A DNA stretch of 64,000 bases from Apostichopus japonicus (taxonomy: Eukaryota; Echinodermata; Holothuroidea; Aspidochirotida; Stichopodidae). The stretch spans positions 40,941,611 to 41,005,610 of the forward strand of contig NC_092576.1 of NCBI RefSeq assembly GCF_037975245.1, given 5' to 3'. The notes under the pieces are model-generated. The model searched no databases and was not told the DNA's origin. It worked only from the letters and a program-made list of their open reading frames with translations. A program made the translations under genes and the position numbers. Positions 19,284 through 46,200 of this stretch are shown here, one piece after another (the first letter of the stretch is position 1; each line of letters starts with the position of its first letter).

Positions 19284-22200
19284 ATGAATAGCATCACTGT
19301 AAAACAAGAACCATCTGATGAAGACATTATCTTTAAAAATGGATGGATCAAAGAAGAGAAGGGTGAAAGAGGTACTGTTAGATCTTGTTGATAGATAAAC
19401 AATTATATAAAGTAGATATTCTTGATTGACCTCTTTTCTTAATAATATTATGATTTACTAGATACAGTATGAAAATGAAATAGTATTTAAGAAACTTGTT
19501 TGCAGATATGTTAGATGGTAAGATTGGGAAGTGTATGTTCTGCTGGGATGTAAACACAATTGTTAACATACAATGCTGAAACATGATAAATCAAAACCAT
19601 TTCCCTCAGAAATTTTTGGTTTAGAACACATCAGCTAAATGAGTGTCTACTCTACAGGTGGGTCTTTTCATTTAAAATTCTTTGATCATGCTAAAAACAA
19701 AACTGAACTTAAATAGAAAACAAGCATTCTTTTAATACTTTATAAATAATTATTGTTTTTAGATGTTAGGATTCACAATCTTCTGTTGAATCTGATAAAT
19801 TCTAATATTCAGACTCTTTACAATGAAATTTTGTTATATTTACCTTTAAAAAAGAAATACTGTAAACAAGGAATGGTTTACTGAAAATAAAAGTTTTGCA
19901 CATTGCCTGAATGTTGTGAAACCTGTCAAGGTTCTTGCTGACATGATGATCATGGTCTGTAAATAAAAAAAAAAATTAACTCCTGTTTTTTGTTATTCCA
20001 TTTTCAGGTTACTTTCAAAGTGATATCAGGAACCTGTCTGGTAATGATGACAGACAAGGAAAATATGAAGACTTTGTGATGAAACAAGAGGTTGACAACC
20101 AAGATGAAGATGTAATGGAAGATTATGGTCAGTTTATGCATAAATTATAAAGTTAATAAGTGAGAGGTTTTTGCAAGTTACGTTCCATTTATGATCCAAG
20201 GTGTTTCGTAAAAGTAGCTGAATGTAAACAGATGGCTTAATATGTTCCATTGTACATAGGGCATGTGTATGATGTGTTAATTGGTCATCTGTTCCCTATT
20301 GATGACATCTGACTGAAGAGTAGGTTTAAGAAGTTCACACAGAAGATGCCAAAACAGTCTCCAATTAGTCTTCTCCATTAATTATTGCAACAGTAACACT
20401 AGATTTAACCTTTCTTACAACCTTACTCAATATATGCAGGAAACTGCCACAATAATCAGGATTCAATAGTACTTAGCAAGATCTCTTCTAAGCAATATAA
20501 CATGTCTTGCAGGCTTGGGGCGATTACATCTGAATGTAATGGATTACGATTACGATTACTTGAGAATGTATGATTACGATTACAGCCTAAAGTTGAAGTA
20601 ATCGATTACGATTACGATTACATTGTAATGTAATCGTGATTACAATCATGATTACATTGTGGTTACTTGCACAATCCTCTGCATATCTGTTTAATATAAC
20701 TCTCTGCCGGGAAATAGGGCAATGAAATAGGGCAAAGGAAGGGCATTTACAGTATGGATACAGACAAAATTGTGGAAGTATATCTACAATTCCTACCAGG
20801 CATTACACATTTATGCCTTAACACGTTTAAGATGTGTAACCCATAAGTCCAGTAAAAAATACAATTTAAACAGACAATTTAAATAGACAACCAGTTGTGT
20901 ATGCAAAAGGATTGTGAACGCTGAGAGGCAGCATTGAACAGAATAATTCAGGTGATAAAAAATCCTTGAATATGGTGATCAAATCCCCAGTACTTCTTAG
21001 TATAGGTTAATTGTGCTAGAGAATTCTAGAAGCAGGAACACTTCTTTGGTCACACTAAAAGCCAATAGTAAGAATTAGTTTTAATCATTTCTACTAATTT
21101 TGCCCTTCTCATTCAAATTTCACTGTAATCATAAATGTTATACGATTACGATTACTTTGCCCTTGTAATCGATTACGATTACTTTGTAATTTTCACTAAA
21201 GTAATCGATTACGATTACGATTACTTCAAAAAATGTAATCGATTGTAATCGATTACGATTACTGATTACGATTACCCCAAGCCTGATGTCTTGCGGAAAG
21301 GAAATTTGAAGGTATTCTCTTAGCACATCTTGTCTCAACATATTCCCAATTTGAAAGTCAACTCAATGCCGCCCTCTGCTTCTAGCGACAACAGATTCAT
21401 TTCTTTTAATGTGGCATGTGCATCCTTAGCTATAAACAGCATACGAATCTGGGTACTGTTACCACAAAGTTCTCAGGTGTCCTAGATTCCAATCCGTATC
21501 TCTGTTCTCCTATAGGACTACTGTATAACTGTACTGTGTGTTATGTGCGAGCAACTTTCCGCTTGTTCACGATAGTGCTAGCTGTATGCAAGTTTTCAAT
21601 TGGCTGTGGAGCAGTGCGTATTGTGTTGCTGGGAAACGTTATACCAGCTCGTAGGAGTCATATTGGCCTCTGAAAATTTCCTAGAGGAGTTATACCTTTA
21701 ATTCTGAGATGCGCTTGTAAGGAGTGTGATGTTACTGGGAGAACTACAGGAGGATGCAATGGAAAGAAGTTATTTAACTTTGACCACATCATTCACTTCG
21801 TTGTTGCCAGATGAATGCACATAATACCGCCAAATTGAGAAAATTTCATATCTTTGCCATACAAAATGCTATAAGAATATGGTTTTGACCTTAAAATGCA
21901 GATAATTGCTGGCATGTTTTCTGCATAAATCATATTCATAATTCAATTACCAGAATATCATTTTGGCATGTACAAATTTGTTGTAATATTGTAACCAATT
22001 TTGTATTTATTTACAATCAGATCTTGCAGATGTCAACATTAAGCGAGAGCTGCAGGATGATAATGTGCAAGTAATAGGTAAGAAATTTTTGATTGTAACT
22101 TTAAAGGTCTACTGACAACTAGACAATATCCCCCATAGTAATAGGTAAGAAACTTTTGATTGTAACCTTAAAGATCTATTGACATCTGGACAATATGCCC

Positions 22201-43200: not shown

Positions 43201-46200
43201 GGTCTATCTACAACTAGACAACATGCCCCATATGAATAGGTAAGACACTTTGTAACTTTAAAGGTCTACCCACAACTAGACAATATGCCCCATAGCAATA
43301 GGTAAGACACTTTGTAACTTTAAAGGTCTACCCACAACTAGACAATATGCCCCATAGTAATAGGTACAGTAAGACACTTTTAATTGTAACTTTAAAGGTC
43401 TACCGACAACTAGACAATATGCCCCATAGTAATAGGTAAGTCACTTTGTAACTTTAAAGGTCTACCCACAACTAGACAATATGCCCCATAGTAATAGGTA
43501 AGTCACTTTGTAACTTTAAAGGTCTACCCACAACTAGACAATATGCCCCTTAGTAATAGGTAAGACACTTTGTAACTTTAAAGGTCTACCCACAACTAGA
43601 AAATATGCCCCATAGTAATAGGTAAGACACTTTGTAACTTTAAAGGTCTAGCCACAACAAGACAATATGCCCCATAGTAATAGGTAAGACACTTTGTAAC
43701 TTAAAAGGTCTACCCACAACTAGACAACATGCCCCATAGTAATAGGTAAGACACTTTGTAACTTTAAAGGTCTACCGACAACTAGACAATATGCCCCATA
43801 GTAATAGGTACAGTAAGTCACTTTTAATTGTAACTTTAAAGGTCTACCGACAACTAGACAATATGCCCCATAGCAATAGGTAAAACACTTTGTTACTTTA
43901 AAGGTCTACCAACAACTAGACAATATGCCCCATAGTAATAGGTAAGACACTTTGTAACTTTAAAGGTCTACCCACAACTAGACAATATGCCCCATAGTAA
44001 TAGGTAAGACACTTTGTAACTTTAAAGGTCTACCCACAACTAAACAATATGCCCCATAGTAATAGGTAAGACACTTTGTAACTTTAAAGGTCTACCCACA
44101 ACTATACAACATGCCCCATATGAATAGGTAAGACACTTTGTAACTTTAAAGGTCTACCGACAACTAGACAATATGCCCCATAGCAATATAGGTAAGACAC
44201 TTTGTAACTTTAAAGGTCTACCCACAACTAGACAATGTGCCCCATAGTTATAGGTACAGTAAGACACTTTTCATTGTAACTTTAAAGGTCTACCGACAAC
44301 TAGACAATATGCCCCATAGAAATAGGTAAGTCACTTTGTAACTTTAAAGGTCTACCCACAACTAGACAATATGCCCCATAGTAATAGGTAAGTCACTTTG
44401 TAACTTTAAAGGTCTACCCACAACTAGACAATATGCCCCTTAGTAATAGGTAAGACACTTTGTAACTTTAAAGGTCTACCCACAACTAGAAAATATGCCC
44501 CATAGTAATAGGTAAGACACTTTGTAACTTTAAAGGTCTACCCACAACTAGACAATATGCCCCATAGTAATAGGTAAGACACTTTGTAACTTTAAAGGTC
44601 TACCCACAACTAGACAACATGCCCCATAGTAATAGGTAAGACACTTTGTAACTTTAAAGGTCTACCGACAACTAGACAATATGCCCCATAGTAATAGGTA
44701 CAGTAAGACACTTTTAATTGTAACTTTAAAGGTCTACCGACAACTAGACAATATGCCCCATAGCAATAGGTAAAACACTTTGTTACTTTAAAGGTCTACC
44801 AACAACTAGACAATATGCCCCATAGTAATAGGTAAGACACTTTGTAACTTTAAAGGTCTACCGACAACTAGACAATATGCCCCATAGTAATAGGTACAGT
44901 AAGACACTTTTAATTGTAACTTTAAAGGTCTACCGACAACTAGACAATATGCCCCATAGCAATAGGTAAAACACTTTGTTACTTTAAAGGTCTACCAACA
45001 ACTAGACAATATGCCCCATAGTAATAGGTAAGACACTTTGTAACTTTAAAGGCCTATCCACAACTAGACAATATGCCCCTTAGTAATAGGTAAGACACTT
45101 TGTAACTTTAAAGGTCTACCCACAACTAGACAATATGCCCCATAGCAATAGGTAAGACACTTTGTAACTTTAAAGGTCTACCCACAACTAGACAATATGC
45201 CCCATTGCAATAGGTAAGACACTTTGTAACTTTAAAGGTCTACCCACAACTAGACATTATGCCCCATAGTAATAGGTAAGACACTTTTACTTGTAACTTT
45301 AAAGGTCTACCAACAACTAGACAACATGCCCCATATTCGGTACCTCTTTTGTGTGTGATAATTTCATTCAAAATCTGTTGAAATTTTTCAAAAAGCACTT
45401 CTCGTTTCCAAGATATACACATTTGAAGTTTGAGAAATCTGTGGAAACTCATTAAATATGTGCAACTATGACGTGAAGTGTTGTGCTAATCAAACTTTGT
45501 TAATGTACACATATATCATTTGAATAATGTGATGTTCCTCTTTTCAAGAAGACAATAAAGTAATTCAAAACAATCGCCATAGGCAACAATTTAACAAACC
45601 TGTGTTCAGTATTGAAACCAAGGTTGAAGAAACAAAGGAATAACATAACAGAATATTAGGCAGTCATTCTCTTTACATCATCAATGTGCATAATTAGCTA
45701 ATGTTTATTCATAAATGGAACTAGAATTAAGAAAAGACTTGTAAAATGGTCAATCTTTGATGGATTTTCATGGGAGTCACAGCCATTTTCATGATTACTA
45801 ATTTCTTTTAGAGTAATTAGGACAATGTTGTTCCTTGGTGTTTGTAGATCTTTACTAATTATGTATAATGTGTAGTTAAAAAACAGTTTGCTATTTCAAG
45901 AGGGTGGTGATTGATTGGATAAGTGTTTCTATTGTTAACCTGTTTTGTTTGAATTTCATAAACCCTGAAGACTACTTAACAAAATATGAGCAGTAACTTA
46001 TTTCCCCATTACAAGATGCAAGTTTTAGTGTAATTCATTATGGTGGTCTAAGGGGTAATTAACAACCAACATGATGATCATTTGCAGGTAATAATTTATC
46101 TGGTATCGCATCCCAAAATGCTTTGCAAAGATGGACACATTCCTCTACAAGTCCAAAGATCTATCACACTTTCTTTACACATGAATCAAACTATAAATAT

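What the first reader, a model, noticed from the sequence alone, without database searches (positions are those of the whole stretch)
22071..45336. An intron made of several hundred tandem copies of its own 5' splice site
Seen: the coding exon ends GTAATAG|GTAAG at 22071-22082, and every roughly 62-bp unit of the following 23-kb array ends TAATAG-GTAAG in the same orientation. Many units read GTAAGA, some GTAAGT (the perfect U1-complementary form, e.g. near 24916), others GTACAG. The array is thus seeded on the exon/intron junction. Inference: U1 snRNP could be recruited hundreds of times in one pre-mRNA, giving donor competition, U1 titration, suppression of premature polyadenylation, or recursive splicing through AG|GTAAG. 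Use of any donor but the first adds a stop codon (the frame hits TGA at 22113), so donor choice could act as an expression switch.
Basis: partly seen in the sequence, partly recalled or inferred. Interest (0 to 1): 0.95.

Follow-up and report, generated by a model that had tools for sequence, protein, structure and literature searches.

The report
Satellite built from a splice site
In what is probably a sea cucumber genome, the end of a predicted gene exon, its splice signal and the tip of a neighbouring transposon were duplicated together hundreds of times, so that one predicted intron carries some 275 good copies of its own start signal; whether the cell uses them is unknown.

Summary
Array 22071-45335 has 366 repeat cores (62-bp unit, some 67 or 72). 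Of 365 unit junctions, 274 carry AG|GTAAG, not every one. A junction pattern has 286 matches in the genome (671.58 Mb, probably the sea cucumber Apostichopus japonicus) and 286 in the window. New here is the origin. The 62-bp unit is a chimera: 7-8 nt of exon end, donor and intron start (18-23 nt), then the TTAA target site and first ~33 nt of a dispersed miniature inverted-repeat transposon (MITE). The array's 5' edge runs into the exon and its 3' edge into the rest of that MITE (to 45851). So the exon/donor/transposon junction was amplified in place; no ready-made satellite landed beside an exon. The predicted intron (22078-46526) splits a C2H2 zinc-finger gene in matching phase; exon 22021-22077 has no transcript support. 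Most downstream donors pair with U1 as well as the first, yet using any of them adds a TGA at 22113. The donor is not specially conserved among units, so selection for many donors is not supported. Nearest precedents: the human IFI6 minisatellite, polyubiquitin dual-specific sites, satellites from transposon ends. New variant of known kinds; function unshown.

The parts
22021..22077 (+). predicted coding exon of the zinc-finger gene (a second acceptor-like AG ends at 22029), ends ...GTAATAG
   Evidence: CAG at 22018-22020, open frame [19 protein letters not shown], phase 1 fits exon 46527; only match in the genome is itself
22071..22077 (+). last 7 nt of the exon, the part of the exon repeated in the units (8-nt exact suffix match AGTAATAG to the unit)
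22078..22083 (+). first 5' splice site, TAG|GTAAGA, 7 of 9 U1 pairs
22101..22137 (+). first copy of the MITE left end: TTAA at 22101-22104, then the terminal-repeat head; the next exon-end/donor copy follows at 22138
22071..45335 (+). tandem array, 366 cores, units mostly of 62, 67 or 72 bp, each = exon end + donor + intron start + MITE left end; nested higher-order repeats
45303..45851 (+). remaining full MITE copy: left end inside the last unit, body and right terminal inverted repeat beyond the array
45852..45855 (+). right flank TTAC, a probable decayed copy of the TTAA target site duplication
46527..47644 (+). zinc-finger exon (C2H2 fingers), after acceptor TTGCTTCTTTTCAG, 14 of 16 pyrimidines at -20 to -5

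Best explanation
A TTAA-targeting MITE inserted 23 nt downstream of the 5' splice site of a zinc-finger gene (read from the sequence). A segment from 7-8 nt inside the exon to about 33 nt inside the MITE was then tandemly duplicated with at most one base of microhomology at the junction, and unequal exchange or replication slippage amplified it to about 366 copies with nested higher-order repeats (structure shown, mechanism inferred). Because each unit carries the exon end plus, in most cases, a good donor, expansion, contraction or exchange between units can keep an intact exon/donor junction at the 5' edge, so the array can grow in the gene without destroying splicing (inferred). Most likely the spliceosome mainly uses the first donor. 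Use of a downstream donor extends the exon past the TGA at 22113 and gives a transcript open to nonsense-mediated decay. The array is then mainly a tolerated, locally born satellite and not a selected U1 device (inferred). The stated confidence is for the origin; the first three rivals share it and differ on the exon or its use.
For: Chimeric unit: 45336 onward matches a dispersed element on 15 other contigs (44 matches; 40 of 1111 candidates scored; 74-83% identity in the 39 main rows). The unit's 38-nt 3' part aligns, wholly or in part, at the element's left end in 27 of 39 other copies above the 99% score of shuffled queries. The same head recurs inverted at the right end. TTAA flanks both ends in 8 of 23 copies with both ends recognised. 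Edges: the last unit continues into the MITE body, the first into the exon. Uniqueness: junction pattern 286 genome-wide, 286 in the window, 0 reverse. One other copy (L033) carries a two-fold, 58-bp duplication of MITE end plus flanking DNA, the same kind of founder event. The first unit is the most diverged of 365 by substitutions (0.13 against a mean of 0.04), as unequal exchange predicts for an edge. Neutrality: 21 of 62 windows are more conserved than the donor 9-mer.
Against: No transcript supports the exon or the donor. 274 of 365 junctions still hold AG|GTAAG, which recent amplification explains but selection would too. The 3' edge unit is not exceptional: 34 of 365 units (itself included) diverge as much or more. 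The MITE head TTTAAAGGTCTA is the most conserved stretch and this is unexplained. 12 of 39 copies do not show the unit's MITE part above the shuffle score. Only L033 clearly shows an end duplication, and TRF reported no repeat overlapping the aligned element in any of 39 copies. If the assembly is the published one, HiFi reads averaged 14.7 kb, shorter than the array, so its exact length may be wrong.
Confidence: 0.8

Rival explanations
1. Functional multi-donor array (same origin): the repeated donors recruit U1 or compete with the first donor, and tune how much productive zinc-finger mRNA is made by shunting part of it to a TGA-containing, decay-prone form.
For: 275 + strand sites with at least 7 of 9 U1 pairs; computed duplex energies of the common ones are equal to or better than the first donor's (-9.4 to -10.5 against -9.4 kcal/mol). 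All extended forms contain TGA 22113. In human IFI6 downstream repeat units are reported to serve as donors (passage of PMC4526556).
Against: Donor not specially conserved; 54 junctions carry the weak GTACAG form and 17 GTAAAA. No expression data.
Confidence: 0.12
2. Dual-specific or recursive splicing (same origin): AG|GTAAG in each unit works as acceptor and donor, so the intron is removed in steps of unit length, or units form short pseudo-exons.
For: 348 AG|GTAAG, AG|GTAAA or AG|GTACA sites in the array. AGGT sites that work both ways occur in tandem in human UBC and are reported to have weaker consensus scores (PMC10809524). 99 of 1747 AGs in the array have at least 11 of 16 pyrimidines upstream, 93 of them AAAG|GTC.
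Against: AGs before donors have 8 of 16 pyrimidines in 298 of 348 cases, against 10 and 14 at the two predicted acceptors of this gene.
Confidence: 0.06
3. The exon 22021-22077 is not real (same tandem origin): the array is a MITE-end satellite in non-exonic DNA whose GTAATAG|GTAAG resembles a donor by chance.
For: No transcript evidence; the exon is short (57 or 48 nt) and its acceptor has only 10 of 16 pyrimidines; no relative in the genome supports it (3 candidates scored).
Against: Open frame, both splice signals and phase agree with the downstream zinc-finger exon.
Confidence: 0.2
4. A pre-existing satellite inserted beside the exon.
For: None found. One match of the 32-place core pattern lies outside the window (361 against 360), but that pattern covers the MITE part only.
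Against: 286 junction matches genome-wide and 286 in the window; both edges continue into exon and MITE body.
Confidence: 0.02

Closest known systems
[quoted passage not shown] paper not held)
   Same: Tandem repeat at an exon/intron boundary whose units carry 5' splice sites; two downstream units are used as donors (passage of PMC4526556; title in the reference lists).
   Different: Here hundreds of copies over 23 kb, a unit that includes a transposon end, and an extended reading frame that meets a stop in the first unit; use not shown.
Polyubiquitin UBC tandem dual-specific AGGT splice sites (PMC10809524: abstract, outline and passages seen)
   Same: AGGT in register in tandem units.
   Different: UBC units are coding ubiquitin monomers; here units are intronic, 62 bp (not a multiple of 3), with weak acceptor context, and splicing is unshown.
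Satellites born from TIRs of MITEs and foldback elements (Tetris TIR-220, PMC4079207, abstract and outline seen; review PMC9659126, passages seen)
   Same: A terminal inverted repeat, or part of one, amplified in tandem.
   Different: The unit here also holds host exon end and splice donor, and by the junction pattern the array is confined to one place.
Satellite-filled gigantic introns of Drosophila Y genes (PMC6508621, search listing only)
   Same: Intron made largely of tandem repeats.
   Different: Those introns are megabase-sized; I did not test whether their repeats carry donors.

Membership tests
MITE with TTAA target site | terminal inverted repeats | tested here: met
   same head at left and inverted right end in many of the 39 copies and in the window element; two copies (L062, L071) showed neither end within 6 mismatches
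MITE with TTAA target site | target site duplication | tested here: met
   for the family: TTAA at both ends in 8 of 23 copies with both ends recognised, left in 16, right in 12; the window copy has TTAA left and TTAC right, so imperfect
MITE with TTAA target site | dispersed, short, non-coding copies | tested here: met
   549 bp in the window; 40 of 1111 candidates scored, on 15 contigs besides C16; no ORF of 100 aa or more overlaps 45303-45851
Kolobok or piggyBac superfamily | autonomous partner with matching ends | not tested
   TTAA alone does not decide between them; recalled only
TIR-derived satellite | tandem array whose unit derives from a transposon terminal repeat | tested here: met
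   27 of 39 copies match the unit's 38-nt part at the left end above the 99% shuffle score
IFI6-type splice-donor minisatellite | repeat starts at the exon/intron junction and units carry a donor | tested here: met
   274 of 365 junctions AG|GTAAG; 8-nt exon match; the exon itself is predicted
IFI6-type splice-donor minisatellite | downstream donors used in transcripts | not testable with these tools
   no RNA data
Dual-specific splice site array (UBC type) | AGGT used as both donor and acceptor | not testable with these tools
   AGGT present in most units, acceptor context weak
Dual-specific splice site array (UBC type) | coding repeat monomers delimited by the sites | tested here: not met
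   62-bp units in a predicted intron, stop in frame from the exon

The most novel reading that the evidence does not exclude
A satellite that carries its own splice donor protects its host gene: every unequal exchange regenerates a correct exon end and donor, and the spare donors act as a stochastic poison-extension dial on a zinc-finger gene, or as a platform of U1 snRNPs along the intron.
Probability: 0.12. Interest if true: 0.85.

Novelty: new variant of a known kind. Interest (0 to 1): 0.58.

Why it matters
If the exon is real, the locus is a natural experiment on how the spliceosome chooses among about 275 near-identical 5' splice sites on one transcript, of which only the first gives the protein. 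It also lays out a stepwise origin of a gene-internal satellite: transposon insertion, capture of a splice junction, tandem amplification. It suggests why some repeats are tolerated inside genes: they copy the signal they might otherwise have destroyed.

Tried and rejected
Pre-made satellite next to the exon: rejected. The 32-place core pattern has 361 matches genome-wide against 360 in the window; the extra one was not among the places listed, and since the pattern lies wholly in the MITE part it may be a MITE end. DNA searches of the genome with the unit gave too many candidates and were not scored. Paralogues of the linker before the fingers: one search found 1 match at E 0.001 (8 candidates scored), one search found 2 at E 10 (3 candidates scored), all this gene; the finger region itself was not searched. 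Purifying selection on donors: not seen. Polyadenylation silencing: no AATAAA or ATTAAA on the array's + strand, 25 AGTAAA. Edge divergence by unequal exchange: holds for the first unit, not for the last; counts that include length differences are dominated by the 72-bp units and I dropped them. End-associated tandem duplication as a habit of this MITE: of 78 ends tested in 39 copies, L033 right is the one recognised end clearly above shuffles (20 against a shuffle maximum of 12); L046 left is marginal (13); L065 (78) and L056 (34) come from left ends that were not recognised. TRF reported no repeat overlapping the aligned element in the 39 copies, and it missed the L033 duplication too. In print: I saw only the listed titles and abstract starts (20 of 887; 12 of 2,073; 12 of 54; 5 of 5; 10 of 18; 8 of 79); none is on this array. 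The pyrimidine count of the downstream acceptor was taken one and two bases off; one search repeats it at the right base with the same result (14 of 16).
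Full report
WHAT IS THERE. The exon end GTAATAG and donor GTAAG stand at 22071-22082. From there to 45335 runs a tandem array: TRF reports period 62, 365.7 copies, and a 382-bp higher period. My own segmentation finds 366 cores; spacings are 62 (286), 72 (50), 67 (10), 64 (9), 63 (4), 53 (3), 66 (2) and 77 (1). There are 87 distinct unit sequences among 365, with nested higher-order repeats. 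At the 365 junctions the donor reads AG|GTAAG in 274, GTACAG in 54, GTAAAA in 17, ATGTAAG in 8, other in 12. Sites with at least 7 of 9 Watson-Crick pairs to U1: 275 on the array's + strand, 0 on the - strand; 40 and 30 in the 40.6 kb of window outside it.

THE GENE. An exon at 46527-47644 encodes C2H2 zinc fingers, after a good acceptor (14 of 16 pyrimidines). The predicted exon 22021-22077 is open in one frame ([19 protein letters not shown]) and ends in phase 1, which joins in frame to GT AAT GGT of the zinc-finger exon. Searches with this exon and the linker before the fingers found only this gene in the genome (8 candidates scored, 3 candidates scored). No transcript is available here, so the exon, the donor and the 24.4-kb intron 22078-46526 are predictions.

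WHERE THE UNIT COMES FROM. The sequence right after the array (from 45336) matches a dispersed repeat on 15 other contigs: 44 matches, 40 of 1111 candidates scored. Those copies have inverted terminal repeats beginning TTAAAGGTCTACGGACACC and TTAA at both ends in 8 of 23 copies with both ends recognised, so this is a MITE. The last 38 nt of the unit, TTAA included, are the left end of that MITE: they align there, wholly or in part, in 27 of 39 other copies above the 99% shuffle score; in 12 they do not. The window copy keeps its left end in the last array unit, its body after the array and its right end at 45851, followed by TTAC. So the unit consists of the exon end (7-8 nt), the donor with the intron start (23 nt before TTAA in the first unit, 18 in the common 62-bp form) and the MITE tip. 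The first unit runs into the exon (8-nt identity before the splice boundary) and the last into MITE body. This geometry is that of a tandem duplication in place. A junction pattern spanning MITE, exon end, donor and intron start, with 3 mismatches allowed, has 286 matches in the whole genome and 286 in the window. A core pattern inside the MITE part has 361 and 360.

HOW IT GREW. Another MITE copy (L033) has a two-fold, 58-bp duplication of MITE end plus flanking DNA, a small version of the same founder event; it is the one clear case among 78 ends of 39 copies. By substitutions the first unit is the most diverged of 365, as unequal exchange predicts for an edge, but the last is not exceptional (34 of 365, itself included, as diverged or more). 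The array's length may be inexact: if the genome is the A. japonicus assembly of PMC10344927 (passages), HiFi reads averaged 14.7 kb. That identification rests on sizes only: 671.58 Mb in 35 contigs here against 671.6 Mb in 34 scaffolds there, and contig lengths such as 29,643,483 and 20,392,820 close to the paper's scaffold N50 of 29,647,521 and N90 of 20,397,903.

WHAT IT DOES. By computed U1 duplex energy the first donor (TAG|GTAAGA, -9.4 kcal/mol) is no better than 222 later ones of nearly the same sequence and weaker than 27 with GTAAGT (-10.5). The second donor (22145) would leave an exon of 124 nt, an ordinary size, so neither strength nor size explains choice of the first. All extended forms contain TGA at 22113. 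If downstream donors were used often, the gene would make decay-prone mRNA. Selection on the repeated donors is not seen: 21 of 62 windows of nine bases are more conserved than the donor. The most conserved stretch is the MITE head, unexplained; units were anchored on it, though the spacings show no missed unit. No AATAAA or ATTAAA lies on the array's + strand. AGs before donors are weak acceptors (8 of 16 pyrimidines in 298 of 348). I therefore favour a tolerated, locally born satellite whose units happen to renew the exon/donor boundary at each exchange; I keep donor choice as a real but untested possibility.

WHAT IS KNOWN. A minisatellite that supplies splice donors is known from human IFI6 (original paper not held). 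Tandem AGGT sites are used as donor and acceptor in UBC. Satellites from transposon terminal repeats are well known. The combination, a splice junction captured with a MITE end and amplified to hundreds of copies, is in none of the papers listed by my searches, which cover open-licence papers only and listed a part of the matches.

Noticed in passing
47518-48402: A second tandem repeat in the same gene: TRF reports 7.3 copies of a 124-bp unit (last zinc finger plus the stop region) running past the stop at 47644 into the 3' region; 124 is not a multiple of 3.
   Followed up: no
3436-3846: About four 99-bp tandem copies overlap the 3' end of a NACHT-domain open frame (1904-3523).
   Followed up: no
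20521-20657 and 21140-21275: Stretches rich in GATTACGATTAC repeats just upstream of the exon.
   Followed up: no
22071-45335, unit columns TTTAAAGGTCTA: The MITE head with its TTAA is nearly invariant (0.3% non-consensus in its best nine-base windows) across 365 units, more so than the donor; cause unknown.
   Followed up: partly
46527-46541: The downstream exon begins GTAATGGTAATAG, resembling the upstream exon end and donor (CAAGTAATAG|GTAAG); may be chance.
   Followed up: no
L033 around 2039-2130: Another copy of the MITE with a 58-bp two-fold duplication of its right end plus flanking DNA.
   Followed up: yes
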